Shown here piece after piece: positions 43,364-64,000 of a DNA stretch of 64,000 bases; the first letter of the stretch is position 1, and every line of letters begins with the position of its first letter. Position numbers and translations under genes: made by a program. Origin of the DNA: Halorubrum rubrum (GTDB lineage Archaea; Halobacteriota; Halobacteria; Halobacteriales; Haloferacaceae); the NCBI RefSeq assembly GCF_024494685.1, contig NZ_JANHDM010000003.1, positions 1 to 64,000 on the forward strand. The letters are read 5' to 3'. The notes under the pieces were generated by a model. It did no database searches. It was not told the DNA's origin and saw only the letters and a program-made list of their open reading frames with translations.

Positions 43364-43369
43364 CGCCCG

Positions 43370-46891: not shown

Positions 46892-47007
46892 TGTACTGCG
46901 GGTTCTCACCCGCACAGTTCGACGAGTTCCGCTGGGAGGATGTCGAGCTTCTCATGAGCGCGTTCCCATACCTCCAGCACCCACCCGTCGAGGTGACCGA
47001 TGATTGA
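46891..47007 (+). CDS. Tail assembly chaperone, second part (gpT-like)
   Basis: A 38-residue ORF (MYCGFSPAQFDEFRWEDVEL, ending LLMSAFPYLQHPPVEVTDD) that starts on the last base of the previous stop and overlaps the tape measure start by 8 bases. Short helical gpT-like pieces are normally made by frameshifting; here no slippery run is evident, so re-initiation is likelier. Confidence 0.5.
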   Translation: MYCGFSPAQFDEFRWEDVELLMSAFPYLQHPPVEVTDD

Positions 47008-48301: not shown

Positions 48302-48483
48302 GTGACGCTGTGGTCGTATGCCCGTCTAAGTTGGAATATCGAGAATATAGAGATTGCTAGCGACGCAGACACGACAACCACGATGAAGTCACCTAGAGCC
48401 CACCCGTGGTAGATTCCACCGAGAGCTATCAGCGCCCCTAGAATCTCCATGATCCACTCTCGCGGGTCCTTCCCGATCGCCAT
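48298..48483 (-). CDS. Small membrane protein on the opposite strand
   Basis: A 61-residue protein with two hydrophobic helices (WIMEILGALIALGGIYHGWA; FIVVVVSASLAISIFSIFQL) and a basic tail. It is the only reversed gene in the late operon. A TATA-like element lies 21-28 bases upstream (48504-48511, reading TTTACTAA), so it has its own promoter and could be expressed in the lysogen. Its composition is more AT-rich than its neighbours. A superinfection-exclusion role is inferred from placement only. Confidence 0.58.
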   Translation of the reverse strand: MAIGKDPREWIMEILGALIALGGIYHGWALGDFIVVVVSASLAISIFSIFQLRRAYDHSVT

Positions 48484-48552
48484 ACTCGCGACGTCTCACC
48501 CAGTTAGTAAAGAGGTTCGGGCAGTCCACGACGCAGTTTCCATTCATACCAC

Positions 48553-49218: not shown

Positions 49219-50399
49219 CCCGTCGCTACTACCGGTCGGAAGTCCCCGAGAGCAGCCTCGCGAGCAACCGGCTCGATGCCGCTCGCTCGCGGCTCTCTCG
49301 CCAGGGCGCTCTCGGCGGGAGTGGCCGTGTCGACCGCGTCTCGGGTGAGTCGCCGGACATCCGCCTGGATGTCGACTACCGCGGCCGCTACGCCGAGCGG
49401 ATCGCACGGGAACTCCGTGAGGTGCTCTCCGCACCTGGCATCGAGAAAGCGCCGTTCGCGACGGTCGAGGCGAAGCAGGACGCGGATGCGTACTACACGG
49501 CCGAGCTCGTCGACGACGAGCCGGCGATGGTCCAGGCGCCGGGCGCGATCTCGGTCGGGGCAAACCTCGTCGAGGTCGGCACCCGCAACACGCACTGGGT
49601 CGGCGTGGACACCGCACCGAGCCAACCCGATCCAGGGCATCCGTTCGGGAACGGCACTGACGCGCTCGTCGGCATCCCTGCCGACGCCCGCCGCGTCCAG
49701 ATCGTCGACTCGACGAGTGAGCCGACCCAGCGCGACCAGCCCATTCCGGTCGCGACCGTCACCGCCGAGCACGGCGACGTCGACCTGTACGACGCGAGTG
49801 CCGAGTCGATCGACGAGCCGATCTACCTATTCGACCTGGAATACGATCCGCAGGGCGACGTCGATCCGGGCGTGTGGGACACCTACGGGAACGCGAGCAT
49901 CCTCGATTCGGACGACGTCGTCGCGTGGGGGCGCGTGTTCGACACGGGCCACGACTTCGGGGACGGTGAGCTCGTCATCGAGAACGGCCTGCTCCGCCTC
50001 CGAATCGACGAGCCCACCAACGCGGACGCCACCGCGACCCTCGAGGCCGAGACGTACGACGCCGGCGCGGACAGCTGGACCGCGGTTGATCTCCCCGCCT
50101 ACCAGGACGGCGATCTCGACACGGACTGGCAGCCGGCCGACGTCGACCTCACCCGCATCAGCCAGGCACGTGTCGCCGCGCAGATCGAGTTCTCGGCCGA
50201 GGCCGGCACGAACGCGGGCGACACCTACGCGGCGGACGCCCAGCTGGACCGCGGGCGCGAGGCGCTGTTCGTGACGGAGACGAGCGACGGCGAGCTCCCG
50301 CCGGACCTGGAGGCGTTGCTCGCGCCGATCGCGGCGACATCAGTCGTGGATCCGGGCGTCGAGCAGGCGCTCGTTGCGCGTGAGGAGGTGCGTCGCTGA
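49215..50399 (+). CDS. Tail-tip or baseplate protein, unknown
   Basis: A 394-residue protein from the ATG at 49215 that overlaps the previous stop. The N-terminal domain ends near residue 70 (RIARELREVLSAPGIEKAPF). Beta-strand regions follow (TAELVDDEPAMVQAPGAISV; EPIYLFDLEYDPQGDVDPGV; GELVIENGLLRLRIDEPTNA). A C-terminal helix (LEALLAPIAATSVVDPGVEQ) ends it. Shares TGATG with the adhesin gene. Confidence 0.6.
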   Translation: MTRRYYRSEVPESSLASNRLDAARSRLSRQGALGGSGRVDRVSGESPDIRLDVDYRGRYAERIARELREVLSAPGIEKAPFATVEAKQDADAYYTAELVDDEPAMVQAPGAISVGANLVEVGTRNTHWVGVDTAPSQPDPGHPFGNGTDALVGIPADARRVQIVDSTSEPTQRDQPIPVATVTAEHGDVDLYDASAESIDEPIYLFDLEYDPQGDVDPGVWDTYGNASILDSDDVVAWGRVFDTGHDFGDGELVIENGLLRLRIDEPTNADATATLEAETYDAGADSWTAVDLPAYQDGDLDTDWQPADVDLTRISQARVAAQIEFSAEAGTNAGDTYAADAQLDRGREALFVTETSDGELPPDLEALLAPIAATSVVDPGVEQALVAREEVRR

Positions 50400-52867
50400 T
50401 GGTCACCGAGAGTTGGTCGAGCCCAGGTGAGTACACGTGGACGGTTCCGGGCGACGTGCCGGGGCAAGTAACTGTTGAACTGTGGGGCGCGCAGGGTGGC
50501 GACGGTGACGGTGGAGCCACCGGAGGCGAAGGCGGATATGTCCATGCCACCATCCCTGTTTCGACCGGCGAGGATCTGGTAATCAACGTCGGTGGCGCTG
50601 GTGCGACCCCTTCAAACATCGATAGTGAAACCAGAAGCGGGGGCGGGCACAACGGCGGGGGCGATGCCTATCGTGTCGATAGCATAGTTGGTGGTGCGGG
50701 CGGTGGTGCGTCCGACATTCGGCAGGGTGGGTCAACACTCTCAGATCGGCTTGTAGTTGCGGCTGGCGGTGGTGGTGGAGGCCATGGCTGGGACTACAGC
50801 GAAAACGGCGGTGCTGGTGGTGCGAACGAGGGTGAATCGGGCGACGATACGTTCGAGTCGTACGGCGGAGGGGGTGGTACACAGGTTGATGGTGGCTCCG
50901 GCGGCGGGCTTCAGTACAACGGGAGCGATGGACTTGACGGGTCGTTGGGACAGGGGGGAGACGGCGTCCATTACTATACTAGTTCAGCCAGCGGAGCGGG
51001 CGGCGGCGGCTACTACGGCGGCGGGTCTGGCGCTTGTTCGGACCGTGGCGATGGGGACGCTGCTGGCGGTGGCGGCGGCTCGAACTACACCGGGGGCGCG
51101 ACGGCCGTCACGACCAACCAGCGCGGCGGCTCGACCGGTGACGGCGAGGTCGTCATTACATACGAGACGCTTACGATCCCCTCGGTGTCAGCATCGTACG
51201 TCGCGGATGACCAGATCGACGTGACGATCACGGACTCGTCGGCCGACGAATACGACGTCCAGATGCGTCGGGACGGCGGGTCGTGGGAGTCGCCGGCCGG
51301 CGGCCCGTCGTCGCCCTCGTCGACGGGGACGTACAGTTATGGCCCTGCGGGCGACACGGCGTACGGCCGGCAGGTCGGGGTCGACTCGTCGTTCGAGTTC
51401 CGGGTGCGGTGGGTCTCGGGCGGCACGACGGGCGACTGGGCGTACTCCGGGACGGTGAAAACGAGCCCTCTTCCGCCGCACGATCCGAGCGTGAGTCGGC
51501 CGGACGCGTCGACGATTCAGATACACGGGACAGTACAGTCCGACATCAGTTCGAAGATCCGCGTCGAATTCCGCGAAGACATCGGGAACGGGTACAACGA
51601 TTGGAGCGGCTTCGATTTGGTCGCCGAAGGAGATACAGATCAATTGACATCGGGGTCTGTTGAATCCAAAGGATCCGATTTCACGTTCACCTACGAGACA
51701 GGAGAGAGTTATCCCGGATACAGCGGAGACCCGCTCAACGACAACGCTCGGTACCAGTTCCGGCTCCGCACGTGGAACGACCCCAACGGTACGGAACGGA
51801 AGGTGTCCAAGTGGGTCTACGCCGACTACGGCAACGAGGGCAACGTGTTCCTCGATACTCAATTCGATACAGAAAGTTGGGATTACGAGGCTGGTTCACC
51901 GGAACTTTGGTCAAGCGAGATAACTGATATTGCCGGTGGTGGACCACAGTACGGCAGCAACTCCGCCTTGATACGCGGTGGCGAAGACATAGAGTTCGAT
52001 TTGGCGGGCCTCGACAGCAGCCCGACCGATGACGTGGTCGTCCTTGCGTGGGTCGGTGTCGGGTCGATGGACGCCGCCAGTGAGGACGGGATCGTCGAGT
52101 GGTACGACGGCAGCAGTTGGCAGCAGATAAGCGGCCCGTACGGATGGGAGTACAACAAGCAGGGGTGGTTTCAGGTCCACGCAACCGTGCCCGCATCCTA
52201 CATCGAGGGCGGCAACAACAACCTCCGAATAGGGAACGTGGCCGGTTCGGCGGACGACTATCTCGCCGTCGATCGTGTCGTCGTCTCGGACATCCTCCAC
52301 GAGTACACGGAGCCCGCTACGCCGTCGAACCTGTCGCTGGACGTGTCGACGCAGCGAGAGATAACCGGGACGTGGGACCTGAACGCGTCGGTCGCCGACA
52401 CGGCCGTCCGTGACACCGAAACGTGGTTCGCCCCCACCGACGAATCGCTCAACGGCGCGAACCGTGCCGGCGGGCTGGAGTCGTACACGTTCGACGGGCT
52501 GCTCGACGGCGAACGCTACCGACTGGAGGTGAACGACTCTATCATCCAGTACCGCCGCGGATCGGCGGGTCTCGAGATGGACACCGACCGCATCGGTACG
52601 GAAGCGACGACCATCCTTCCCGCGCCGACCGGCTTCGCCGTCTCGAACGTCACCGACTCGACCGCCGACTACGCGTGGCAGTCGAACCACAACTACGGGG
52701 ACGTGCTCGTCCAGTTCAAGCCGACGGACGCGGGATCGTGGACGACCGTCGCGACGCGCGACCTGAACGCGACCACTGAGACGGTCACCGGGCTGCGGAA
52801 CGGCGAGGCGTACGACGCCCGCGTGGTCGCGAACACGGAGCACGCCCAGACGGAGGACGATTCCTGA
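50399..52867 (+). CDS. Glycine-rich tail adhesin with Fn3-like and jelly-roll-like domains
   Basis: An 822-residue protein. Residues 5-30 (SWSSPGEYTWTVPGDVPGQV) and 31-245 match the Gly_rich (PF12810-type) architecture: long runs of glycines separated by short polar pieces (RLVVAAGGGGGGHGWDYSEN). Fn3-like repeats follow (ISVSASYVADDQIDVTITDS-like strands near 255-360), a probable jelly-roll near 505-640 (VFLDTQFDTESWDYEAGSPE) and two more Fn3-like units. The first two thirds are less GC-rich than flanking genes, suggesting exchange. Likely the receptor-binding fibre. Confidence 0.68.
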   Translation: MVTESWSSPGEYTWTVPGDVPGQVTVELWGAQGGDGDGGATGGEGGYVHATIPVSTGEDLVINVGGAGATPSNIDSETRSGGGHNGGGDAYRVDSIVGGAGGGASDIRQGGSTLSDRLVVAAGGGGGGHGWDYSENGGAGGANEGESGDDTFESYGGGGGTQVDGGSGGGLQYNGSDGLDGSLGQGGDGVHYYTSSASGAGGGGYYGGGSGACSDRGDGDAAGGGGGSNYTGGATAVTTNQRGGSTGDGEVVITYETLTIPSVSASYVADDQIDVTITDSSADEYDVQMRRDGGSWESPAGGPSSPSSTGTYSYGPAGDTAYGRQVGVDSSFEFRVRWVSGGTTGDWAYSGTVKTSPLPPHDPSVSRPDASTIQIHGTVQSDISSKIRVEFREDIGNGYNDWSGFDLVAEGDTDQLTSGSVESKGSDFTFTYETGESYPGYSGDPLNDNARYQFRLRTWNDPNGTERKVSKWVYADYGNEGNVFLDTQFDTESWDYEAGSPELWSSEITDIAGGGPQYGSNSALIRGGEDIEFDLAGLDSSPTDDVVVLAWVGVGSMDAASEDGIVEWYDGSSWQQISGPYGWEYNKQGWFQVHATVPASYIEGGNNNLRIGNVAGSADDYLAVDRVVVSDILHEYTEPATPSNLSLDVSTQREITGTWDLNASVADTAVRDTETWFAPTDESLNGANRAGGLESYTFDGLLDGERYRLEVNDSIIQYRRGSAGLEMDTDRIGTEATTILPAPTGFAVSNVTDSTADYAWQSNHNYGDVLVQFKPTDAGSWTTVATRDLNATTETVTGLRNGEAYDARVVANTEHAQTEDDS

Positions 52868-55650
52868 TGCCCCGACAGTTCACCACCGGCCTCCCGGACG
52901 AGGACCAGCCGCTGCTCGGCAACGGCGTCGAGGACGAGATCGCCGTCGACCGCGAGAGCGCACCCACGAACTACGGCGATGTCCGCATCCAGATCCGCGA
53001 GACTGGGGCGTCGTCGTGGGACGGATCGGCCGCCGGCTTCGGGGAGTTCATCGGCGCGTTCGACACGATCACGATGGAATTCGTCGGCCGCGAGGACGGC
53101 GAGAGGTACGAGGTCCGCGCCCGCACCGAGACCGAGCACGTCACGGGGGGATGGACCGAGCCGGTCGCGATCACCACGCAGTTCCCCGGCGCAACGGCGC
53201 TGACAATGACAGCCGCCGGGACGACGACTGTCGACCTCGCATGGACGGACAACGCCGACAACGAGACGGGCCAGCGCGTCATCCGCGAGCGACAGCGTGC
53301 GGACGGCACCTGGCGTCGGCAGCGGGTGGTGGCCGACGCCGGCGTCGACGCCGAGACGTTCACCGACGACACGGCCCAGCCCGACCGGACGTACCGCTAC
53401 CGGGTCGAGCCGTACACCGAGCACACGAGCGCGCAGTCCGACACGGTCACGGCGACGACCGACGCCCTCGCCGGCGTGCGCGACCGCCGCGTCGCCGCCC
53501 GGGGCTGGACCGTCGAGGTCGACCACCCGTCGGGCGACACGCTCCGGCCGACCGTCCTCGAGGGCGCGGAGTGGCGACCGCGACTCAAGGCCAAGCCCCA
53601 GGTCCGCATCCCCGTCCCGAAGTCCGACACCTGGGAGGCCGAGGGCGTCGAAGGCTCCACGATCCGCGCCTGGAAGCACGGCACGCGTCTGCCGATCGGC
53701 GAGGTCCGCAGCGTCGAGCGCGAGGAGGGCCAGGGTGGCACGCGGGACGTCATCATCGCGGCCGGCGGCGTGGCGCTGGATGACGACGTCGAGGGCATCG
53801 AGTACCCCGAGGAAGACGCGCACATCGCCGCCGAGGAAGTCATCACCGACGAGCTCGGCTGGGTTGCGAACGTCGACGACCCGCAGACGAGCGCTCGCGA
53901 GGACGTCCGCATCTACCAGGCGAGCGACAGCGCGGACTTCAGCGGCGGTATCGAGGGCGAGAGCGGCGGCGACCCGTTCCCGGCGACGTCGCCGCTCACC
54001 GTCCAGGACAACGAGGTCTATGCCGAGGCCACGGGGTGGTTCCAGGAGGCCGAGGACGCTGACGGTGGTGGCGTCACGAACACCACGCAGGGCGGCGAGT
54101 GGTCGGACGGACAGGCCGTCGAGCTCCGGTCAGGCGACAGCCGGACGTTCGACCTCGACACTGAGCACACCATCCCGCAAGGAGAGCTCTACCTGACGCT
54201 CGTCTACGCGATCCCGAGTGATACGGGCCCGGGGCTCGAAGTGACCGTCGACGTCGACGGCGGCAGTGAGATCGTCGTCGAGTCGTTCGGCGAGGGCGGG
54301 CTCAACCCGACCGGTGGCGACTTCGATCTCGCGGCCTTCGAGGTGCTGCTGACGGACGGGGACGTCGGCGATCTCCCGCCCGGGAACCACAGCGTCGAGG
54401 TCGGCATTCCCGTCACGTCCGGCGGGGAGATGCTTCTGGACTTCGTCCACCAACGCGACGACCGCTTCAGCTACGATCTGGGCGACACCACGCCCGTCGA
54501 CGGCGTGGTCACTGGCTGGCAGCAGCACCCGGCGGACGTCGACGTCGTGTTCGAGCCGATCTCCTCGGTCGAGCAGGTGGTCGCCGGCCAGCTGGACGTC
54601 GAGATGGCGACCGACCAGGGCCCGGTCGCGCTCGGCCTCCGGAACGACACGACCGCGTCGTGGACGGAGGGATCGGGCACGTCGTTCGCGACCGACTTCG
54701 CGTCGCCGAGCCAGCTGCTCCAAGCACGCGTCACGCTCGGCCGTGAGGACTCCGGCTCGCAGTCCGGGCAGTTCGGCGACGTTCCGCATCGGTTGGACTT
54801 CCTCAACCTCTACGCCGATCTCGTGAACACGCCCGTCCTCATCGACTTCGTCCATCGCGGGTCGATCCTCGATCTGCTCAACCGGATCGCCGACGCTGGA
54901 AACTTCATCTGGGAGCTCCGTCGCGCGAGCGAGAGTGCCGACGCGGAGTACCGCATCGAGTGGACGCAGCCCGGCCAGCGGGTCGCCGACCGGGAGCCGA
55001 CGCTCGTCTCCTATCAGGGCCGGCGGACGATCGAGGGGAGCTATCAGCGCGTCATCGCGGAGGGCAAGACCGCGCGCGTCGAGGCCGAGACGGTCACGAC
55101 CAACGACTACGGGCTCAACGTCGGCCTCGACGAGGGGCCGGTCGACGCCGGCTCGGAGACCGTCTACGACGTCGGTGATCGCTCGAGCACCTACGAGCGC
55201 AACATCGACTACACCATCGGCCACTCCGAGGGGACGCTCACCATCCTCGAGGGCGGGTCGATGTCACCCGATACGGACTACCAGATCGATTACGAGTGGC
55301 GCTACGAGGGGCGGTACGCACAGCCCGGCGTCGCCGACCCGAACACGCTTCGCGAGCAGTTCCCCGACGCGACGTCGGACCGAGAGTGCGAGCAGCTCGC
55401 GCTCGCCGTCGTTCGCGAGGTCGCGGCGCCGCTTGAGGAGGCCGAGGTGACCATCCGCGAGGACGACCCCGACCGGCCGCTCGTCGCGTCGATCCCGGCC
55501 GACCGGCTGCCGTTCGAGGGCCCGCTCAAGGTGCGCGAGGTGAGCGCCGATGCTCGCGAGGTGACGCTGACGCTCGGGAGTCGAGAGAGTGCGGGCGACG
55601 TCGTCGACAACTTCAACGACCGGCTCTCGGCGGTCGCGCGGAACGTCTGA
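52867..55650 (+). CDS. Tail hub/tip protein with Fn3-like domains
   Basis: A 927-residue protein. Residues 1-200 are two Fn3-like domains (TNYGDVRIQIRETGASSWDG; TTVDLAWTDNADNETGQRVI). From about 205 the pattern is of a tail-hub protein (RRVAARGWTVEVDHPSGDTL; FLNLYADLVNTPVLIDFVHR; RIADAGNFIWELRRASESAD), with a possible carbohydrate-binding insert (about 345-540). The C-terminus (REVSADAREVTLTLGSRESA) resembles the siphovirus Tal/gp44 end. ATGA-type coupling to the adhesin gene suggests they assemble together. Confidence 0.65.
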   Translation: MPRQFTTGLPDEDQPLLGNGVEDEIAVDRESAPTNYGDVRIQIRETGASSWDGSAAGFGEFIGAFDTITMEFVGREDGERYEVRARTETEHVTGGWTEPVAITTQFPGATALTMTAAGTTTVDLAWTDNADNETGQRVIRERQRADGTWRRQRVVADAGVDAETFTDDTAQPDRTYRYRVEPYTEHTSAQSDTVTATTDALAGVRDRRVAARGWTVEVDHPSGDTLRPTVLEGAEWRPRLKAKPQVRIPVPKSDTWEAEGVEGSTIRAWKHGTRLPIGEVRSVEREEGQGGTRDVIIAAGGVALDDDVEGIEYPEEDAHIAAEEVITDELGWVANVDDPQTSAREDVRIYQASDSADFSGGIEGESGGDPFPATSPLTVQDNEVYAEATGWFQEAEDADGGGVTNTTQGGEWSDGQAVELRSGDSRTFDLDTEHTIPQGELYLTLVYAIPSDTGPGLEVTVDVDGGSEIVVESFGEGGLNPTGGDFDLAAFEVLLTDGDVGDLPPGNHSVEVGIPVTSGGEMLLDFVHQRDDRFSYDLGDTTPVDGVVTGWQQHPADVDVVFEPISSVEQVVAGQLDVEMATDQGPVALGLRNDTTASWTEGSGTSFATDFASPSQLLQARVTLGREDSGSQSGQFGDVPHRLDFLNLYADLVNTPVLIDFVHRGSILDLLNRIADAGNFIWELRRASESADAEYRIEWTQPGQRVADREPTLVSYQGRRTIEGSYQRVIAEGKTARVEAETVTTNDYGLNVGLDEGPVDAGSETVYDVGDRSSTYERNIDYTIGHSEGTLTILEGGSMSPDTDYQIDYEWRYEGRYAQPGVADPNTLREQFPDATSDRECEQLALAVVREVAAPLEEAEVTIREDDPDRPLVASIPADRLPFEGPLKVREVSADAREVTLTLGSRESAGDVVDNFNDRLSAVARNV

Positions 55651-55755
55651 GGCGCGGCGCCGAGGCAGTCGGGGCCGCGACGCACGGCAGGACATGGTTA
55701 GGGAGGAGGACAAGAAGGCGGATGGGATGGGGAGGGAAACCGTCTTGCCTCCAAC

Positions 55756-55772
55756 AGGGACCAACGGTCCCT
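55756..55772 (+). terminator. Hairpin at the end of the late operon
   Basis: AGGGACC and GGTCCCT form a perfect 7-base stem with loop AAC, 106 bases after the tail hub stop. There is no T-run after it, so terminator is tentative. A 26-codon ORF at 55694-55774 overlaps it and is probably not a gene. Confidence 0.4.
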
Positions 55773-55799
55773 AAGAAATGCTGGGGAGTCAGGAAGTGA

Positions 55800-56501
55800 A
55801 TGCCTTTCGGTGGTTCCGATATCGCGAGAAACAGTATGTTCGACACAGTCACACCGTCAGCTAGTCGTATCGTTCTCGAACACGCGACCCTGATCGCGCC
55901 GGTCGTCGGCCTTCTGTTGCTGCTGGCCGCGCGTCACTACCTTGGTCGGTGGCCCGATCTGTGGCGCTTCCGGCGCGCGGTCCTCCCGGTCGTCGACCGG
56001 CTCGCCGACGGTGACTACGACGAGGAGCTCGATGTCGTCGAGGGACACACCGCTATCGATGTGTCCGCGGCGACCGACGCGCTCCCGGAGAAGACCGGGC
56101 TGCCGCTCCAGGCGAGTGAGTACGTCGGCGTCCTGGACGCGCCGCCCGGCGACGTTCGCGAGGAGCTCCGTGGGATGCCGCGAGTGTGGCCGAACACGCT
56201 CGCGTCGATCCAGTTCGACGTCGTCGACGGCGAGCGCGTGTGGGAGGTCGGCAGCTACGCCTACAGGCCGCAGGGGTTCTTGGGCTCGTGGCAGTATCAC
56301 GTCCGGCTCACGCCCGCCGACGGCGGGCAGAAGACTGCGCTCTGGGCGCACTACGAGAAGTCGGCCTGGCGGCATCCGGTGGATCACTACAACGCCGTGG
56401 GATGGGATGCCGACGAGGGCGTCCGTGAGATCGCGTCGATGTTCACGAGCGACCAGCGGTTCGCTACGAGCGACCGGGCTGTAGAACTGACAGTGAAGTA
56501 A
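55800..56501 (+). CDS. Membrane-anchored provirus protein, unknown
   Basis: A 233-residue protein (a second ATG at 55836 is possible). One N-terminal transmembrane helix (LIAPVVGLLLLLAARHYLGR) is followed by a soluble domain with FRRAVLPVVDRLADGDYDEE, EYVGVLDAPPGDVREELRGM, SWQYHVRLTPADGG and YEKSAWRHPVDHYNAVGWDA. The C-terminal DEGVREIASMFTSDQRFATS is repeated as a remnant at 59290-59370, so the family has duplicated in this zone. Function unknown; I associate it with haloviral late regions. Confidence 0.68.
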   Translation: MPFGGSDIARNSMFDTVTPSASRIVLEHATLIAPVVGLLLLLAARHYLGRWPDLWRFRRAVLPVVDRLADGDYDEELDVVEGHTAIDVSAATDALPEKTGLPLQASEYVGVLDAPPGDVREELRGMPRVWPNTLASIQFDVVDGERVWEVGSYAYRPQGFLGSWQYHVRLTPADGGQKTALWAHYEKSAWRHPVDHYNAVGWDADEGVREIASMFTSDQRFATSDRAVELTVK

Positions 56502-56562
56502 GGACCCTTATGGGTTTGTATGCGAAGATTACATTACAAGGGTACCATAATGTACTGTCGTA

Positions 56563-56829
56563 ATGGTGCCTCACATCCACCCCGACGTTGAGGAGGTGCG
56601 TGCGAACCCGACTAGTGGTGAGCACATGACTCTCGTGCTTGTGGTGGATGAAGAGAAATCCCTCGAGATCGTAAACCGAATCTCTGAGACAACGGGAGTC
56701 GAATTGACTCGTGAGCTAGACGAAGGTGTACTCATACTCAATAGTCTAGAAGAACAGGTTGAGACCGTTGTGGCTCTTCCAGGAGTCCGCTCAGTTTCCC
56801 CTGACGGGGAAGCCGAAATCCTCCAGTAA
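56563..56829 (+). CDS. Stand-alone inhibitor I9/subtilisin-propeptide-like protein
   Basis: An 88-residue protein whose residues 20-88 fit the I9 propeptide fold: beta (MTLVLVVDEEKSLEIVNRIS), helix, beta (VELTRELDEGVLILNSLEEQ), helix, beta (VVALPGVRSVSPDGEAEILQ). In extracellular subtilisins this unit is the fused foldase and inhibitor of the protease. Here it is a separate gene 5 bases before a subtilisin gene. The pair is visibly AT-rich relative to neighbours. Its expected role is to hold the protease inactive. Confidence 0.68.
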   Translation: MVPHIHPDVEEVRANPTSGEHMTLVLVVDEEKSLEIVNRISETTGVELTRELDEGVLILNSLEEQVETVVALPGVRSVSPDGEAEILQ

Positions 56830-56834
56830 CGTCC

Positions 56835-57881
56835 GTGTTGCCTGAATGGGTTTCATCGGCAGAAGAATATCGCGAATTTATTTTCCGTGCTCATCGAGAG
56901 AGCACAAATGCACTCTCTGTTGGAGAGGGTGGCTTTGGTGTTCATGTAGGGATCCTTGATTCAGCTCGAACACTACCGAATGCCGACGGCACATCCACGC
57001 AGATCAAGCACGAACGACGCTTTATCGACACGGATCAAGACCTCACGACACCACACGCAACCCGTGTGTTCGATCTTATCCAGCAGTATGCTCCTCATAT
57101 CACAGTCAGCCTCTATCAGGTGATCAATTCAAACGGGGATCTGGAGGTGGCTGGATATCATGACGCAATTGATGCGGCTATCTCCGATGAGGTAGACATT
57201 CTCAATATTTCAATCGGGGATCCGTGGGACATTCCTGTGTACGCTCACCCCCTCTACAGTAAAACACAGAAGGCGGTGGATTCAGGCATAACAGTTGTCG
57301 CAGCAGCGGGGAACAATAAAGGTGACCAGCCGAAGCCACCAGTACACATTCCGGCTGTAGTTGATGACGTAATCGCGGTGAACGGGTTCGTCACACGCTG
57401 TCCTCAGTCAAAATCGGATACGCACGAACGACGGGAGTCTGGACCATACTACCTTGATGTGGAGACCTCTAATACAGAAACACAACTCGCAGAGGGTGTG
57501 TACTGTGGGTACAATGGTTGTGATGGCCGTAGCTGTATAAAAAAACAGACAGAAACTGGATGGTGGGGTAACCCAAGTGTCAAGAACGACAAACCCGATG
57601 TCTCAGCACCAGTTATTTACCCCTATGGATCTGGGGATAAGGTGGACTTTTTTGAGGGATCAAGCTACGCAGCACCGATAGTCACAGGCATCTTAGCAGA
57701 GGCTTACGGAGAAATTAAACACAGTGTACAAAATCTGCCAACTCCAGCAGAGGTGAGATCACTAGTTCGAGAGACAGCAACACCCGTTAGAGAGAGTGAG
57801 ATTAGGAAAATAAACGGCTTCAAGATCCACGAAGAGATCTCGAAGAGATACGGAAGTGGCGAGGCGCCTCTCAGTCACTAA
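56835..57881 (+). CDS. Subtilisin-like serine protease (S8), cytoplasmic type
   Basis: A 348-residue protease with the S8 triad: Asp42 in VGILDSART, His74 in LTTPHATRVFD and Ser277 in EGSSYAAPIVTGILAEA, with oxyanion Asn160 in VAAAGNNKG. A Cys-containing insertion (CPQSK at 189; GVYCGYNGCDGRSCIKK at 222-237) may bind a metal. No signal peptide or fused propeptide, so it should act inside the cell. Start is GTG at 56835 (TTG at 56838 possible). Paired with the I9-like gene before it; composition differs from the provirus. Confidence 0.85.
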   Translation: MLPEWVSSAEEYREFIFRAHRESTNALSVGEGGFGVHVGILDSARTLPNADGTSTQIKHERRFIDTDQDLTTPHATRVFDLIQQYAPHITVSLYQVINSNGDLEVAGYHDAIDAAISDEVDILNISIGDPWDIPVYAHPLYSKTQKAVDSGITVVAAAGNNKGDQPKPPVHIPAVVDDVIAVNGFVTRCPQSKSDTHERRESGPYYLDVETSNTETQLAEGVYCGYNGCDGRSCIKKQTETGWWGNPSVKNDKPDVSAPVIYPYGSGDKVDFFEGSSYAAPIVTGILAEAYGEIKHSVQNLPTPAEVRSLVRETATPVRESEIRKINGFKIHEEISKRYGSGEAPLSH

Positions 57882-57938
57882 TTAGTCACAGGCTCCAAAG
57901 GCTCTTCACCACCCTGCTGACAGGTGACCACGCGCTCG

Positions 57939-58076
57939 TCAGTCGTCTCGTTTGCCCGCGGCTCGATACAGCTGGAGTGCCTGGCGGATGTGATAGTTCT
58001 TTTCCGCGCTATCGACCGTCTCAAGTGCGTCGTAGAGATGCTGGGCAGCGTCGCCGTCCTGGAGGGAAGGGGACAT
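57939..58076 (-). CDS. Small haloarchaeal/viral protein
   Basis: A 45-residue helical protein (MSPSLQDGDAAQHLYDALET; VDSAEKNYHIRQALQLYRAA) with a clear TATA box (58097-58106) 21-30 bases upstream, so it has a leaderless transcript. The frame is open upstream to 58286 but that part is another reading of decayed DNA. Function unknown. Confidence 0.6.
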   Translation of the reverse strand: MSPSLQDGDAAQHLYDALETVDSAEKNYHIRQALQLYRAAGKRDD

Positions 58077-58096
58077 ACCCGGCGGTGCGTGCTCGC

Positions 58097-58106
58097 CATA
58101 ATAAAG
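58097..58106 (-). promoter_or_regulatory. TATA box for the 45-residue protein gene
   Basis: CTTTATTATG on the minus strand, well placed for the ATG at 58076. Confidence 0.6.
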
Positions 58107-58137
58107 ATGACTTTTTGTGATGTTTCTGATTAGCGAG

Positions 58138-58216
58138 AGGTTACGCGAAGTCGCCGGCGATCGTCGTGTGCTTGGTCGCCATCCCGCAGCGACGTACGGA
58201 CGCTTTGATACGACCG
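58138..58216 (-). pseudogene. Fragment related to the zinc-ribbon gene at 63045-63275
   Basis: The minus strand reads RRCGMATKHTTIAGDFA before a stop, like RCGTETEATTIAGDFLCSEC of the intact gene at 63045-63275. No start or first zinc pair remains. Confidence 0.4.
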
Positions 58217-58270
58217 CCTCTTCACCCCTCGTGACATCACGTGTGAACCCTGTACTCGCGGTGGGATCAA

Positions 58271-58426
58271 CTAGCGCTCCCACCACTAGTCGATGTCGCG
58301 CGCCTCAATGTCGACGCTGAACGTCACGCCGCACGAGCAGTGGACACCGACTTGGATCGCTTCGACCGAGATCGGCGACCGCTCTTTTCAGCAGTTCGGA
58401 CACGCGGCAGTGAAGGTCTCAGTCAT
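58271..58426 (-). pseudogene. Dead copy of the small zinc-ribbon gene
   Basis: It has the same 51 codons as the intact gene at 59638-59793, read MTETFTAACPNC, then TGA, then GVHCSCGVTFSVDIEARDID, then TAG, then WWER. Thus it shares GVHCSCGV-SFSVDIEARD but has two in-frame nonsense codons at positions 13 and 47. Length and frame are kept, so decay is recent or the copy is a non-coding relic. Confidence 0.75.
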
Positions 58427-58671
58427 GGTCACCGAGACAGACAGCGCACGCAACTGTAAGTCCAAGGCGTAGGCACTGAGCACACCGAGAACCGCCGTTG
58501 GAGACACCGTCGCTAGAGCATCGAGAACTGTCGCAACGATATAGGCTATCAGTCAAAATAGTACTTGAGAAAAACTGTCTCGCCTGAGTTGTGGGCAGTC
58601 GCTCTCGCGGTGTCGTCGTTGACGGGATGCCCTCCGCAGCACGAGTCACTCGTTGGGAACGCACAGAAGAG

Positions 58672-58678
58672 CTATACC
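58672..58678 (+). promoter_or_regulatory. TATA box for the lipoprotein gene at 58706
   Basis: CTATACC lies 28-34 bases upstream of the ATG at 58706. Confidence 0.5.
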
Positions 58679-58705
58679 TCGGAAAGGGACGATGGTACAC
58701 GAGCA

Positions 58706-59269
58706 ATGACAGATGGGACAAATCGCCGATCCTTCCTCGCCGTAACTGGGACGAGTACCGCTGCGGCCCTCGCCGGCTGCTCCGGAGGGTCGCCGTTCCA
58801 AACCGATGATGGTAACGAGACGACGGAGGATGGCGACGATTCCGAGACAGAAGCGACAGAAGCGACAGAAGCGACGGAAGCGACACTAACGCTCCAGGTC
58901 CAACCGGACCAGGACGCACTGACGACCGCCCAAGAGGACCTCCAAGAAGCGATCGACGAGGGGGAGATCACCCGACAGGAGGCGCAAGAAGAGTACCAAA
59001 GCACACAAACGGAATTGACGGCAGAAGCGGTGAGCGCCTACGAAGAAACCGCGGCGGACACCGACGGCGTCTCGGTCGAGGACGCGGAACCAGAGGACGG
59101 CCTTCTCCGTGTCAGCGCACCCGCTGCGACGTTCGTCAGCGGGCTTCAAGACGGCGATGTTAGGGCGGTTCTGCCCAGTGAGTACTACGATCAGTATCTC
59201 CAGCAGCAGCAGATTCAAGAGCAGATCGCCAACCAGCAGGAAGACGACGGGAACACGACCGACGAGTGA
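58706..59269 (+). CDS. Tat-exported lipoprotein, unknown
   Basis: A 187-residue secreted lipoprotein. The signal has a twin-arginine (NRRSFLAVTGTSTAAALAGC) with a lipobox cysteine. An acidic Thr/Glu linker follows with repeats of ATEATEATE, then a helical coiled region (DALTTAQEDLQEAIDEGEIT, RQEAQEEYQSTQTELTAEAV) and a C-terminal helix (YYDQYLQQQQIQEQIANQQE). Cell-surface anchored; function unknown. The ATG at 58706 is set by the Tat signal. Confidence 0.75.
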   Translation: MTDGTNRRSFLAVTGTSTAAALAGCSGGSPFQTDDGNETTEDGDDSETEATEATEATEATLTLQVQPDQDALTTAQEDLQEAIDEGEITRQEAQEEYQSTQTELTAEAVSAYEETAADTDGVSVEDAEPEDGLLRVSAPAATFVSGLQDGDVRAVLPSEYYDQYLQQQQIQEQIANQQEDDGNTTDE

Positions 59270-59289
59270 AGTTGTCGAGCGGTCGCACG

Positions 59290-59370
59290 ATCGTCGACGA
59301 GGGCGTTCGGGAGGTGGCGTCGTGGTTTGCGAGTGACGAGTGGTTCAGGTTGTTTCGTACCAAGAAATAA
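59290..59370 (+). pseudogene. C-terminal remnant of a paralogue of the 55800 gene
   Basis: The frame ending at TAA 59368-59370 reads VDEGVREVASWFASDEWFRL, matching DEGVREIASMFTSDQRFATS of the intact gene at 55800-56501. No upstream part remains; the lipoprotein stop precedes it by about 20 bases. Confidence 0.55.
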
Positions 59371-59408
59371 ATAGGAGCCATCGAAAGCACTGGTATCCAC
59401 CAGCGCTT

Positions 59409-59504
59409 TCAATAGAGGACCGTCACAACCTGGGACAGAACCCAGATCCCGACGATCGCAACGAAAGCTGCTCTGAACAGCTCATTCACGATTTCGGCGT
59501 TCAT
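59409..59504 (-). CDS. Mini membrane peptide
   Basis: A 31-residue ORF (MNAEIVNELFRAAFVAIVGI, ending WVLSQVVTVLY) with one hydrophobic helix. It lies in an AT-rich stretch of 267 bases with no other gene. Single-helix peptides like this occur in haloviruses; confidence is limited by size. Confidence 0.35.
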   Translation of the reverse strand: MNAEIVNELFRAAFVAIVGIWVLSQVVTVLY

Positions 59505-59637
59505 TTGTCTTGTGTCGCTGGTGGATTCATTACCGTCCAGCGACATCTCGAAGCACATTCTCGTGGTATAAAAACACCCATGTGCCGGGTAAGGACAGTT
59601 GGGATACTCTTATCCCTGTATGCTTTTTCGGACTCCG

Positions 59638-59793
59638 CTATCGCTCCCACCACTCGTTGACATCCCGCGCCTCAATGTCGACACTGAAGCTCACGCCACA
59701 CGAGCAGTGGACGCCGATCTGCCCGGCGTGGTCGGTCATGTGCTTTTTTTCCTCGCCGCAACCAGGGCAGGCGACGCTGAAGTGCTCGGCCAT
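59638..59793 (-). CDS. Small zinc-ribbon protein
   Basis: A 51-residue protein (MAEHFSVACPGCGEEKKHMT; GVHCSCGVSFSVDIEARDVN; ending EWWER) with CxxC and CxC pairs for one zinc. A decayed copy of identical length is at 58271-58426. Function unknown; may bind nucleic acid. Confidence 0.65.
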   Translation of the reverse strand: MAEHFSVACPGCGEEKKHMTDHAGQIGVHCSCGVSFSVDIEARDVNEWWER

Positions 59794-59871
59794 ACTGGAC
59801 AGTCGCTCGCGAGAGCTAAAAGAGCGTGCGGCTAGGGTTCGTCGAGCAGCTCGTCGCGCGCCTGCTTCAAC

Positions 59872-60099
59872 TCATGATATCGGATGGTCGTACTCGTGGA
59901 ACGCGTACTCGCCTTTCCGCATCACCCAGTAGTGACCGCCCGCCTGGACGACATCGCCCCGCTCGAGGGCGGTCGCGAGCAGCTCCCGAGCGTGGTCGTC
60001 GTCGACGTCGAGCTCGTCGTTCGCGAGGTCGCCGATCTCGTCTTCATCGAGTGCTGGATTCTCGGCGACGAGTCGGACGATCGCGTCGTATGCCGTCAT
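59872..60099 (-). CDS. Small winged-helix protein
   Basis: A 75-residue protein (MTAYDAIVRLVAENPALDED; DDDHARELLATALERGDVVQ; HYWVMRKGEYAFHEYDHP). The ATG is one base after the lipoprotein TGA. A coding-like extension (RYHELKQARDELLDEP) continues in the next frame to a TAG at 59833-59835, so the original C-terminus may have been lost by a frameshift near 59880. Possible transcriptional regulator. Confidence 0.58.
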   Translation of the reverse strand: MTAYDAIVRLVAENPALDEDEIGDLANDELDVDDDHARELLATALERGDVVQAGGHYWVMRKGEYAFHEYDHPIS

Positions 60100-60100
60100 T

Positions 60101-61138
60101 TCATACCCAACAGCTGCGGTTCCGCGCGTCAACAGCCTTATTCTCCGATTCACGTGCGTTCTCGTAGTTGCCACCCTCGGCCGCAGCGGAAGCATCATTC
60201 ATGTGGGTCGCGGAATCCAGCATCGCTCCCGCAGCGCAGGTTCGCTCGATGAATACGTCTCGGATGGAGGCCGGGACTTCGGATTCGGCTTGTAGATACT
60301 GTGTCTGAGCAGTACTTAGATGCTGGCTCGCCTCGAGGAACGTTTCCTCGGCGTCCGCGTACTCCTCTTCATCTTCGTACGTCTCCATGGCGGCCCAGTA
60401 CAACTCCAGACCGGTGTAGAAGGGGATCGTCGCATCCGTGTAGATGAGATACGCATCTGTAAGTTCAGCCAGTTCGTCGAACGCCTCGGTTGTGCGCGTT
60501 CGACTGATCGCATCCGTGTCGACGACGTCGATCTCGATTCCATCGAGACGTTCGCGGGCCGATGTGATCGGTTCAGATCCATCCGAAAACAGCCCACCTG
60601 CCTCATCCAATTTCTCGATCGAATCCTCATATCGTTGCGTGTTCCGATACGCCTCCGCCGTCGAGAGCGTGTTGAGTGCCTCGCCGATCGTCTCAAGCCC
60701 GGTTGTGAACTCACGGAGCACTGAGACGTAGTCGCGGTAGGCCTGGAGTTCCTCTTCAGAAATCACGTCGGTAGGCGACTCGATCCGGTCAAGTGCTTCA
60801 TCGGCCTGATCAAGCGCGAGATGGATCGCATCCGTCGAGACCGAGGCATCTGGTCCAATCGAAAACGAGAACGTCGTCTCCTGCTCGATGAGCCGAACCG
60901 CGCGGTCGATGTTGTCCTCCGCGTCCTCGAGCGCTTCCTCGACATCGACATCTGACTCCCCGCTGTCCGACCCATCGCTCGTGTTGCCTGATGCTTCCGT
61001 CGACGAGTCAGCACTTGTGTTGTTCGACGACTCTGGTGACGAGTCGTCAGTGGCGGGAGGCTGGCCGTCCGATACGCAGCCGGCCACTGCGATCGTCCCC
61101 GTACTCCCGAGTAGCTTGAGTGCCCCCCTCCGATTCAT
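60101..61138 (-). CDS. Tat-exported helical lipoprotein
   Basis: A 345-residue secreted lipoprotein. Signal MNRRGALKLLGSTGTIAVAG with a lipobox Cys21. A Ser/Thr/Asp-rich linker leads to a long all-helical domain (EEALEDAEDNIDRAVRLIEQ; TDAIHLALDQADEALDRIES; LEASQHLSTAQTQYLQAESE). Such helical-bundle lipoproteins with paired cysteines near the end (ERTCAAG, RNRSCWV) are common on haloarchaeal surfaces; function unknown. A TATA box is at 61161-61169. Confidence 0.78.
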   Translation of the reverse strand: MNRRGALKLLGSTGTIAVAGCVSDGQPPATDDSSPESSNNTSADSSTEASGNTSDGSDSGESDVDVEEALEDAEDNIDRAVRLIEQETTFSFSIGPDASVSTDAIHLALDQADEALDRIESPTDVISEEELQAYRDYVSVLREFTTGLETIGEALNTLSTAEAYRNTQRYEDSIEKLDEAGGLFSDGSEPITSARERLDGIEIDVVDTDAISRTRTTEAFDELAELTDAYLIYTDATIPFYTGLELYWAAMETYEDEEEYADAEETFLEASQHLSTAQTQYLQAESEVPASIRDVFIERTCAAGAMLDSATHMNDASAAAEGGNYENARESENKAVDARNRSCWV

Positions 61139-61160
61139 AGCTCGTTGTCACTTGCCGTGA

Positions 61161-61169
61161 GCAATAAAT
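61161..61169 (-). promoter_or_regulatory. TATA box for the helical lipoprotein gene
   Basis: ATTTATTGC on the minus strand lies 23-31 bases upstream of the ATG at 61138. Confidence 0.55.
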
Positions 61170-61173
61170 CCGT

Positions 61174-61198
61174 GCTTAATCTTGGTAGCTAATTAAGC
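61174..61198. promoter_or_regulatory. Palindrome upstream of the lipoprotein promoter
   Basis: GCTTAAT (61174-61180) and ATTAAGC (61192-61198) form a 7-base inverted repeat with an 11-base spacer just beyond the TATA box. It could be an operator or activator site. Confidence 0.4.
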
Positions 61199-61305
61199 AG
61201 ACTCGAGAAGTGTGTCGCCAAAGTTCATCCATCAATTCCTCCGTCTTCACCCGCAGAGCGGCCACTTATCCGACCTCATTGAGCCCGCCGGTGCCAGGTC
61301 AACGG

Positions 61306-62964
61306 TCATGAGAACTCTACCTCAAGCAGTCCAGCCGCTGCGGAGACATCGAATACATCCGACCCATAAAACACCGATAGTGGGAGCTCCCGCTCAGGGT
61401 TCGCGTATTCCTCCTGCCAGAGCAGGGCGAGCTCTTTCAGATCAGACGCCCGAACCAACCGGATATCCGTCCCGATCTGCATCTCCAATTTCATCGCATT
61501 CGTCTCCGCTTGGTCTGTGAAGTCCGGGGCGATGATGAGGAACCACTCGACATCGTGCTGCTTGCTCTTGGTGTCGATGTAGCTCTTGATCTTACTCCGG
61601 GTGTCACTCCCCAGCTTGAACTTGTTTCGACGTCGCTTGTTATCCCACAGCAGCCACTTCCCACCCTGCTCGATCTCACCGTCTGCGACCATCCCCGTTG
61701 CCTGCTGGCCTAACTGGTTCACCCCCTCGAGGTTGAACGCCTCACGGAAGATCTCTCCAGTCGCGTCTTCGAACAGGATATCGAGCTTCTCCTCAGCGTT
61801 ATCGGCGTCGACGAGGTCCTGGAGCTGCGGTGGGACCTGGTTGACTGCGCCATCGGCGATCTCCTCATAGGCACCAAGATAGAGGTCGACCGCCGGTTCG
61901 CCCTCCTCGACGGACTTCTGCGACTGCTCAAAGTACTCGATGATGGCCGAAACCATCTCGTCGGTCTTCTGCTTGTGAGCGTCGAGGCCGTACTGATCGA
62001 CGATATTCTTCAACTCGTCTTTGTCAACGACTTCTTTCAGCAGTTCGCTCGGGTAGATCCCGGCTTGGGCGATGTTCTCGCGACGGTTCTCGTTTTTACC
62101 GTAGTTTTTCCCCTCGACCCCGAACCGTTCACGAGCCTCGATCAGAACGGACTGCTGGTCGAATACATCGAGCGTCTCCAGCATCGCCAGCAGATTCTCC
62201 TCCGACATCTCATAGTACAACCAATCGCGTACGACCTCGATGTAGTCCTCCGGGATCCCGACGAGTTCCTTGGTATGCTCTCCGTTCACCTCATACACGA
62301 GCGCCTGCTCCTGAAGCGACCAGAGTCCCTTTTCGATCGTATCGAGTGCGTGCTCGGGACTATCCGACCGGGAGACCTTCGGGAACCGTCCGATCGACGA
62401 GAGACGTCTGAAAAAGTCCAGCCAGGTGTAGTACTCGTGTTTGCTCTCCTGGGCCCGGTTGTGGAGTTCGAAGTAGCTGTACACCATGTGGAGCTCCGAG
62501 TCGTCGACTTGGTTCTGATAGTCGACGGCCGCCTGGGAGAGATGGAGGAGATCGTCCGTGTCGTCAAACGACTCTTCGTCGTACTTCTCGATAAATGAGC
62601 GCTGCCAGTCCTGGACTGCGTCGAGGAGATCTCCTTTCTCCATGTTGTAGTCGGGCTGTTGGATGAGCTGACGCAGAATCCCGTATCGAATGACGAGCGC
62701 CTGGTATGGAGAATCGTTGATCGCAGTCACCCGCGGCGGAGTAAAGTCATTCAGTTCGGTCCGGAGGCGCTCCGGATCGGCGAGTGCCGGAACATACGTC
62801 TTCAGGTACTTCTCCCGGTCATCAAACCCGTCATGTTTGAACGACTCCGGGTCAAAGTCGTCCGTTTGAGCCTTCGTGTCGTCTTTCACGAAGCGCTTCC
62901 GTTCGTAACTGTTCCAATCTCTATCGATGAGATCGATTAGCTCCATGGGATAAGCTGTCATCAT
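61306..62964 (-). CDS. Large protein with C-terminal FokI-like PD-(D/E)xK nuclease domain
   Basis: A 552-residue protein. The N-terminal 400 residues are mainly helical (YFELHNRAQESKHEYYTWLD; SEENLLAMLETLDVFDQQSV) with no known domain recognised. The end reads VADGEIEQGGKWLLWDNKRR: Asp428, Asp441 and Lys443 form the D-x12-DxK nuclease core as in FokI, followed by SDTRSKIKSYIDTKSKQHDV and EWFLIIAPDFTDQAETNAMK. Start at 62964 or 62946 (MELIDLIDRD). No methyltransferase gene is beside it. A DNA-degrading defence or restriction role is inferred from the fold and the accessory location. Confidence 0.72.
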   Translation of the reverse strand: MMTAYPMELIDLIDRDWNSYERKRFVKDDTKAQTDDFDPESFKHDGFDDREKYLKTYVPALADPERLRTELNDFTPPRVTAINDSPYQALVIRYGILRQLIQQPDYNMEKGDLLDAVQDWQRSFIEKYDEESFDDTDDLLHLSQAAVDYQNQVDDSELHMVYSYFELHNRAQESKHEYYTWLDFFRRLSSIGRFPKVSRSDSPEHALDTIEKGLWSLQEQALVYEVNGEHTKELVGIPEDYIEVVRDWLYYEMSEENLLAMLETLDVFDQQSVLIEARERFGVEGKNYGKNENRRENIAQAGIYPSELLKEVVDKDELKNIVDQYGLDAHKQKTDEMVSAIIEYFEQSQKSVEEGEPAVDLYLGAYEEIADGAVNQVPPQLQDLVDADNAEEKLDILFEDATGEIFREAFNLEGVNQLGQQATGMVADGEIEQGGKWLLWDNKRRRNKFKLGSDTRSKIKSYIDTKSKQHDVEWFLIIAPDFTDQAETNAMKLEMQIGTDIRLVRASDLKELALLWQEEYANPERELPLSVFYGSDVFDVSAAAGLLEVEFS

Positions 62965-63044
62965 TACCGTTACACTTCAATCTGAGTGATCGTTAGGATT
63001 CGTGAGATCTGCCTGTTGGAATGATCCGCAGTCGAAAGTGGGAG

Positions 63045-63275
63045 TTACACGAAGTCGCCAAGTGCACCCTGCCCGTCTTCCCGTGTCGTCTCTTGTCCCC
63101 GTTGGACCTCCTGACACTCCGAGCAGAGGAAGTCACCCGCGATCGTTGTCGCCTCGGTCTCGGTCCCGCAGCGTTCGCAGTGACCGTCCGCGCAACTCGT
63201 ACAGAGCGTCTCGCCGTCGACATCGACGAGGACCGCGCCGTTCGAGGCGACGCCGCAGTCGGTACACTCACTCAT
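63045..63275 (-). CDS. Small zinc-ribbon protein
   Basis: A 76-residue protein with four CxxC-type pairs (MSECTDCGVASNGAVLVDVD; TLCTSCADGHCERCGTET; FLCSECQE), able to bind two zincs. A fragment of a relative is at 58138-58216. Its start lies 2 bases after the stop of the downstream-facing coiled-coil gene, so the two are co-transcribed. Confidence 0.65.
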   Translation of the reverse strand: MSECTDCGVASNGAVLVDVDGETLCTSCADGHCERCGTETEATTIAGDFLCSECQEVQRGQETTREDGQGALGDFV

Positions 63276-63277
63276 GA

Positions 63278-64000
63278 TCAGTTCGACGCCAGCTCTGCCA
63301 GCACCTGCTCGTACGTCTCTTCGATCGTCGCGTCGTCGACATCGTAGTTCCCGAGCTCGGCCTCGACCTTCTCACGGATGTTCGGCGCGATGGAGCCGTT
63401 CTTGTTCTTCCGGACGAAACCGTGGTCGATCACTGTGCTCATGTCCTCGTAGTGCGAGCTGCTCGGGTTGCTTTGTAGGCCGAACGTCCGCTGAGCCCAC
63501 TCTTTCTGGCTGCTGACCGTCTTGCCGTGCGCCTCGATGTACTTCAGAAGGCGACGCTGGCGCTCGTTCAGGTTCTCGATTGTCGAGACGATCCGGTCGA
63601 CGGCGTCCTGCTGGAACTCCGCCATGATCGAGCTCTCAACCGTCGACGACGTCGGGGATTCGGGGGCGGCGTCATCGGTCGTGGTCTCGGGCTCGGCCGG
63701 CGGTGCTAGGTCGACATCAACCTCGAACGTCTCGACGAGCGCGGCGACGTCCTCACGCGCGCCCTCGAACGCCGACCGGAACTCTTGGACGTCCGCTTCG
63801 AGGTCGGCCACCGCCTCCTGTAGAGCCTCGTTCTGCTCGGCGAACTCGTCGCGCTCGTCCTGGACGTCATCGAGTTGGTCCTGGATCCGGTCGCGCTCCT
63901 GCTTCAGCTCGTCGACGCGGCCTTGGAGCTCCTGGACGCCCTCGCCGACCTCCGCCGCAGCGCCGGCGCCAGCGCCGCCGTTCCCCGAGCCGACGAGGCG
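63278..64000 (-). CDS. Coiled-coil plus winged-helix DNA-binding protein, 5' end off the window
   Basis: The frame is open to the window edge; 240 residues are visible. The N-terminal part is Gly/Ala-rich then a coiled coil (LQGRVDELKQERDRIQDQLD; DERDEFAEQNEALQEAVADL). After an acidic linker a winged helix is seen (LNERQRRLLKYIEAHGKTVS; SQKEWAQRTFGLQSNPSSSH). The C-terminus is acidic. Layout suggests a regulator or a partition/replication protein of the provirus. It heads the minus-strand pair with the zinc-ribbon gene. Confidence 0.7.
   Translation of the reverse strand, partial: RLVGSGNGGAGAGAAAEVGEGVQELQGRVDELKQERDRIQDQLDDVQDERDEFAEQNEALQEAVADLEADVQEFRSAFEGAREDVAALVETFEVDVDLAPPAEPETTTDDAAPESPTSSTVESSIMAEFQQDAVDRIVSTIENLNERQRRLLKYIEAHGKTVSSQKEWAQRTFGLQSNPSSSHYEDMSTVIDHGFVRKNKNGSIAPNIREKVEAELGNYDVDDATIEETYEQVLAELASN

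What the first reader, a model, noticed from the sequence alone, without database searches (positions are those of the whole stretch)
61306..62964. Orphan large protein with FokI-like nuclease end in the accessory zone
Seen: D-x12-D-x-K core (Asp428, Asp441, Lys443) and following helix resembling FokI, after about 400 residues without known domain, with no methylase in view. The gene sits among lipoproteins, zinc-ribbon proteins and decayed copies typical of a cargo region. Inference: a single-gene defence effector or a modification-dependent restriction enzyme, possibly with a new sensing domain.
Basis: partly seen in the sequence, partly recalled or inferred. Interest (0 to 1): 0.75.

Follow-up and report, generated by a model that had tools for sequence, protein, structure and literature searches.

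The report
Solitary FokI-type nuclease in archaeal provirus
A salt-loving archaeon carries, inside an integrated virus, a gene for a DNA-cutting protein whose cutting end is built like the restriction enzyme FokI but which has no protective methylase beside it and an unknown 380-residue front part; the gene moves between viruses, plasmids and chromosomes with its own promoter and is probably a one-gene weapon against competing DNA.

Summary
The ORF encodes a 546-residue protein (start at 62946, not 62964) whose last ~165 residues are a FokI-type cleavage domain. D422-x12-D435-N-K437 is invariant in 23 homologues. A profile of FokI and five FokI relatives ranks every homologue above several hundred unrelated proteins. 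Foldseek's only significant PDB matches are FokI and Nt.BspD6I. Residues 1-380 match nothing, yet are as conserved as the nuclease. The family is confined to Halobacteria, patchy (23/391 genomes), usually solitary, and moves between families. The window copy lies in a Graaviviridae-type provirus; the induced provirus Humcor1 carries a homologue at the same place. Five chromosomal copies sit beside one tRNA-Met, the kind of insertion site Humcor1 uses. A gene-specific promoter element (TTGAAGT, 32-35 bases before the start) travels with the gene. Only one of about 20 loci has an adjacent methylase (all four annotated FokI relatives do). Carriers avoid no 4-6-base word specifically, so it is not an unprotected enzyme cutting a short unmodified site. 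Best reading: mobile-element-borne, single-gene, FokI-type defence or exclusion nuclease, triggered by modified or otherwise foreign DNA (trigger inferred). New variant of a known kind.

The parts
61306..62946 (-). Complete gene, 546 aa, corrected start (M7 of the ORF given)
   Evidence: Homologues begin at this Met; dN/dS 0.04-0.08; promoter spacing
61309..61800 (-). FokI-type PD-(D/E)XK cleavage domain, residues 383-546
   Evidence: AlphaFold pLDDT mostly above 86 in this part; Foldseek FokI/Nt.BspD6I; HMM and hhalign
61636..61683 (-). Catalytic core D422 ...
   Evidence: Invariant in 23 homologues; aligned with PD..D-x-K of the FokI relatives
61801..62946 (-). N-terminal region, residues 1-382, predicted mostly helical, no known family; presumed sensor/DNA-recognition part
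   Evidence: No Pfam/NCBIfam/PADLOC/PDB match; cropped model has mean pLDDT 53 and no fold match; N-terminal omega similar to or lower than the C-terminal one
62974..62980 (-). Promoter element TTGAAGT, 34 bases before the start codon
   Evidence: Exact in 13 of 22 loci, at most 1 mismatch in 17, always 32-35 bases before ATG in those; exact in 0 of 356 other genes of the same loci
25003..64000 (.). Host provirus of Humcor1/Graaviviridae type (continues beyond the window to about 76.5 kb of the contig)
   Evidence: tblastn of Humcor1 proteins: MCM 25643-27763, tail genes 49356-55647, this gene 61309-62946, Orc1 69490-70464, integrase-like 75161-75952
52867..55650 (+). Tail-module protein flanking the accessory zone on the left
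   Evidence: 69% identical to the Humcor1 922-aa protein QRG24132

Best explanation
A stand-alone DNA endonuclease carried as cargo by haloarchaeal temperate tailed viruses and by islands at tRNA-Met. The C-terminal FokI-type domain cuts DNA, probably after pairing of two copies as in FokI (inferred from the family). The ~380-residue N-terminal region senses the target. Because there is usually no methylase partner, carriers avoid no 4-6-base word, and the sensor does not diversify, the sensor most likely recognises something conserved that the host's own DNA lacks (a DNA modification, structure or state of an invading virus or plasmid) rather than a short plain sequence. It then destroys the invader, or the infected cell's DNA, to the benefit of the resident provirus or host. 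Shown: nuclease fold and residues, solitary mobile gene, own promoter, purifying selection, provirus setting. Inferred: cleavage activity, trigger, defence role.
For: Nuclease fold and catalytic residues. Solitary and mobile: no conserved neighbour, homologue in the induced provirus Humcor1 (PMC7911831) and on plasmid pNVE500, Humcor1's copy groups with another family with 97/98 support, empty site in G016 versus a 3.3-kb insert in G050, tRNA-Met hot spot in five genomes. Own promoter. Patchy with decayed copies. Mrr-type (type IV) nuclease next door in G050 and G099, defence cluster in G408. No D12 methylase association: 10/20 carriers versus 49/116 in a class sample. No avoided short word specific to carriers. 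N-terminus under strong purifying selection.
Against: No functional data. Most loci have no recognisable defence neighbour, and a control set of random genes also gave a few PADLOC hits. No known modification-sensing domain was detected, but the N-terminal model is too poor to exclude one. The k-mer test covers only contiguous 4-6-base words in samples of about 40 kb per genome.
Confidence: 0.55

Rival explanations
1. Classical FokI-like type IIS enzyme whose site is protected by an unlinked methylase, for example the widely conserved haloarchaeal orphan CTAG methylase or a Dam-type enzyme elsewhere in the genome.
For: FokI relatives on plasmids sit beside methylases (same arrangement visible in the unannotated L077); G099 has a D12 methylase directly next to the gene. 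CTAG orphan methylases are conserved and CTAG is under-represented in Halobacteria (PMC6471742; observed/expected 0.28 in carriers, 0.40 in non-carriers).
Against: D12 methylases are no commoner in carriers (10/20) than in the class sample (49/116). The virus Humcor1 has no annotated methylase (64 of its 68 features seen). The N-terminus shows no similarity to the FokI recognition domain. CTAG is depleted in non-carriers too.
Confidence: 0.2
2. A nuclease serving the virus itself (host chromosome degradation, recombination, packaging), secondarily stranded in chromosomes.
For: Present in Humcor1 and the window's provirus at corresponding positions; haloviral nucleases are proposed to degrade host or competitor DNA (PMC8651126).
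Against: Intact, selected copies outside viruses in many genomes and on a plasmid; only two relatives found in viral collections, both Humcor1-like; the gene has its own promoter and lies against the direction of the neighbouring viral genes.
Confidence: 0.13
3. A free-standing homing-type selfish endonuclease cutting a long site to spread its own gene.
For: Solitary, mobile, precise insert into an otherwise conserved chromosomal slot; a long site would escape the k-mer test.
Against: Found at unrelated places with no shared flanking DNA in most pairs; in G050 the insert holds two genes and the second differs in G037; tRNA-Met placement fits integrase-borne elements.
Confidence: 0.07
4. Half of a nuclease/ion-channel module in which the sensor protein triggers membrane depolarisation (RexAB-like logic).
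For: A voltage-gated-channel-like gene is convergent with the nuclease gene in G168 and Saliphagus (adjacent) and in Humcor1 (one gene between), and 1.3 kb downstream in G286; 3 of 6 close channel homologues in 20 carrier genomes lie beside the gene.
Against: Most copies lack the channel; the association was picked after seeing the data.
Confidence: 0.05

Closest known systems
R.FokI cleavage domain (Pfam PF09254, PDB 2fok)
   Same: Fold and PD..D-x-K catalytic residues; domain at the C-terminus; similar total length (546 against 579)
   Different: N-terminal 380 residues without detectable similarity; no adjacent methylase in nearly all loci; sequence below Pfam's cut-off
Nt.BspD6I nicking endonuclease (PDB 5liq, 2ewf)
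   Same: Best Foldseek match (E 9e-5), same order of helical N-terminus and nuclease C-terminus
   Different: Belongs to a restriction-modification system (own knowledge); alignment over the N-terminus rests on a low-confidence model
FokI-like proteins on lactic-acid-bacterial plasmids (WP_081528907, WP_347450078, WP_101854090, WP_164699199)
   Same: Same cleavage domain, comparable length
   Different: Each lies beside a Dam-family adenine methylase; no profile match in the N-terminus
Mrr-type type IV restriction enzymes of haloarchaea
   Same: Solitary PD-(D/E)XK nucleases without methylase; direct neighbours in two genomes
   Different: Nuclease domain of another family (Mrr_cat), not FokI-type

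Membership tests
FokI-type cleavage domain (fold and mechanism class) | PD..D-x-K catalytic residues in the FokI spacing context | tested here: met
   D422, D435, K437 invariant in 23 and aligned with the FokI relatives
FokI-type cleavage domain (fold and mechanism class) | Profile and fold similarity beyond chance | tested here: met
FokI-type cleavage domain (fold and mechanism class) | Score above Pfam's gathering cut-off for PF09254 | tested here: not met
   No hit for the window protein; best member E 0.013; no genome hit over the cut-off in the phylum. A library threshold, not a biological feature
FokI-type cleavage domain (fold and mechanism class) | DNA cleavage after domain dimerisation | not testable with these tools
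   Needs biochemistry
Type IIS restriction-modification system | Cognate methylase beside the nuclease | tested here: not met
   Directly adjacent only in G099; no methylase annotated in Humcor1's listed genes; 4 of 4 annotated FokI relatives have one
Type IIS restriction-modification system | FokI-type recognition domain | tested here: not met
   hhalign of full lengths aligns only the C-terminus; the N-terminal model is too weak for a fold test
Type IV / modification-dependent restriction | Known modification-reading domain | tested here: inconclusive
   No Pfam or PADLOC hit, but the fold of residues 1-250 is unresolved
Type IV / modification-dependent restriction | Cleaves modified and spares unmodified DNA | not testable with these tools
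   -
Known anti-phage system in PADLOC 2.0.0 | Match to a system profile | tested here: not met
   0 of 5027 models at E <= 10
Homing endonuclease | Same target site in all carriers | tested here: not met
   Five copies share the tRNA-Met slot, the rest lie elsewhere without shared flanks

The most novel reading that the evidence does not exclude
A new single-gene haloarchaeal immunity enzyme: a FokI-type nuclease fused to an unknown, slowly evolving sensor of a conserved mark of foreign DNA, used by temperate viruses against competitors, in some elements paired with an ion channel.
Probability: 0.4. Interest if true: 0.8.

Novelty: new variant of a known kind. Interest (0 to 1): 0.6.

Why it matters
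Archaeal single-gene defences are poorly known, and the defence library used here misses this family entirely. If right, it adds a FokI-type effector that works without a methylase, carried by viruses that infect archaea. A 380-residue sensor conserved across distant hosts would point to a common mark of invading haloarchaeal DNA, and a FokI-type domain with a new natural targeting part is also of practical interest.

Tried and rejected
N-terminal identity: Pfam, NCBIfam, PHROGs, PADLOC, PDB sequence search, profile search and Foldseek of a separate N-terminal model all gave nothing usable; alignment depth is too low (Neff about 1.8) for a good model. A wHTH around residues 149-245 and a SAP-like segment around 305-340 look plausible by eye but could not be shown. 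Unprotected short-site restriction: argued against by the k-mer comparison of 10 carriers plus the window with 10 non-carriers. Dam dependence: no association. Weak hits in G002 and G006 (38% over 90 residues) and the 33-residue match in G142 were not taken as family members. Distant relatives outside Halobacteria: none at phylum level with the family profile; PF09254 gave three sub-threshold archaeal proteins of other architecture. Viral collections: only Humcor1 and one IMG/VR contig with a Humcor1-like locus.

Full report
Observation. The ORF is real and the motif is at the stated place. The start codon is better placed at 62946: homologues begin there and a promoter element lies 34 bases upstream of it. 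The protein then has 546 residues and the triad is D422, D435, K437.

Family. A sequence search found close homologues (61-96% identity over most or all of the length) only in Halobacteria: 23 of 391 class genomes match, counting fragments, 6 of 393 in a phylum sample, all of the same order, one of these only a 33-residue weak match, plus plasmid pNVE500 of Natrinema versiforme, Halorubrum virus Humcor1 and one IMG/VR contig. Fragments with stops or partial copies occur in several genomes, as expected for a gene gained and lost often. In G036 the gene is split only by contig ends.

Nuclease domain. Residues 383-546 are predicted with high confidence. Foldseek against the PDB returns Nt.BspD6I and FokI as the only matches below E 0.01. 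Pfam's FokI cleavage domain is hit by 4 of 23 members, best E 0.013, none for the window protein. I therefore built an independent test: a profile of the FokI cleavage domain (FokI sequence written from memory and verified against 1fok/2fok) and five FokI-like plasmid proteins found by tblastn. It ranks every one of the 23 homologues above all unrelated proteins of the neighbourhoods (worst homologue E 0.038, best unrelated E 3); hhalign scores 36.9 against a maximum of 24.7 in 200 column shuffles and 12.4 reversed. hhalign aligns D435-N-K437 with D-T-K of the FokI relatives.

N-terminal region. No sequence or fold match; PHROGs hits were weak and of unknown function. Full-length profile comparison with FokI relatives aligns only the C-terminus. 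It is nevertheless as constrained as the nuclease: N-terminal omega 0.03-0.11. Recognition parts of restriction enzymes usually diverge to change specificity (own knowledge); this one does not, suggesting a common, conserved target. That is inference.

No methylase partner. The four annotated plasmid FokI relatives each lie beside a Dam-family methylase, and the unannotated fifth has a similar 644-aa ORF nearby. Among the haloarchaeal loci a methylase is directly adjacent only in G099; a type IIG enzyme lies three genes away in G408 and a methylase about 5 kb away on pNVE500. D12 methylases anywhere in the genome are as common in carriers (10/20) as in a class sample (49/116). If the enzyme cut a short unmodified site without protection, carriers should lack that word. 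In about 460 kb from 11 carriers and 400 kb from 10 non-carriers no contiguous 4-, 5- or 6-base word is eliminated; the smallest maximum observed/expected over carrier genomes is 0.48 (CTAG, also low in non-carriers and known to be rare in haloarchaea, PMC6471742) and 0.79 or more for 5- and 6-base words. Gapped, degenerate or longer sites were not tested.

Setting and mobility. Humcor1 proteins map across the window from 25003 and on to about 76 kb of the contig: MCM, tail genes, this gene, Orc1, an integrase-like ORF. The gene sits between the tail and replication modules, as in Humcor1. Humcor1 was assembled from an archival virus stock as an induced provirus (PMC7911831). In G050 and G037 the gene lies in a chromosomal slot; the close non-carrier G016 has about 70 bp where G050 has 3.3 kb. 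That insert holds this gene and an Mrr-type nuclease; in G037 similarity stops at the end of this gene and the neighbour is a different, PIN-like gene with no Pfam hit. The slot abuts the 3' end of an intron-containing tRNA-Met; five carriers (G050, G037, G327, G286, G191; two families) have the gene 0.3-2.2 kb from this tRNA, with a related flanking gene. Humcor1's attP matches the 3' end of a tRNA-Met gene. The gene tree places the Halorubrum/Humcor1 copy with those of another family (97/98 support), so transfer between families occurred.

Promoter. TTGAAGT stands 32-35 bases before the start in 13 of 22 loci exactly, in 17 with at most one mismatch, and in 0 of 356 other genes exactly. The spacing suits the core promoter of a leaderless haloarchaeal transcript (own knowledge). 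Gene plus promoter thus travel as a unit.

Function. Purifying selection outside viruses, patchiness, element-borne spread, lack of methylase and occasional type IV and other defence neighbours favour a one-gene defence or exclusion nuclease; the control set of random genes shows that the neighbourhood signal is modest. A trigger other than a short plain sequence is preferred because the host's own DNA must be spared. Modification-dependent cleavage is the simplest form; haloviral DNA modifications such as 7-deazaguanines exist (PMC8651126). An unlinked methylase, a viral function, homing, or pairing with the ion channel remain possible and are weighed above.

Comparison. It works like a FokI-type nuclease at its C-terminus but is not a member of the FokI type IIS restriction-modification class: methylase and recognition domain were tested and not met. 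No PADLOC profile covers it, and neither the haloviral survey (PMC8651126), the provirus survey (PMC11705971) nor the archaeal defence survey (PMC12988326) mentioned it in the passages searched; supplements were not read.

Noticed in passing
L018:22148-22978, L058:7677-8504, L003:9729-10265, L055:11204-12022: Voltage-gated-channel-like protein (Ion_trans, with a C-terminal CxxC motif in Humcor1) next to or near the nuclease gene in four independent loci, convergent in three; close homologues are present in only 5 of 20 carrier genomes.
   Followed up: partly
window 56563-57881: Small protein followed by a subtilisin-like protease in the provirus accessory zone; possibly inhibitor/propeptide and protease.
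   Followed up: no
window 25000-64000 and Humcor1 (L018): TGCA strongly under-represented in both proviruses (20 of 136 and 26 of 117 expected), not in host chromosomes.
   Followed up: no
L047:8297-11562, L048:10055-11362: Variable slot at the 3' end of an intron-containing tRNA-Met, holding this gene plus an exchangeable second gene (Mrr-like or PIN-like); a candidate haloarchaeal defence hot spot.
   Followed up: partly
L070:1459-2481: Unrelated haloarchaeal protein shares a short SAP-like segment with residues 305-337 of the nuclease (E 0.03).
   Followed up: no
L061 (G265:C5:33548-35321): Copy split into two frames by about 118 bp between codons 183 and 179; looks like a disrupted gene.
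   Followed up: no
L067, L068, L069: Sub-threshold FokI-cleavage-domain matches in proteins of other architecture in distant members of the phylum.
   Followed up: no
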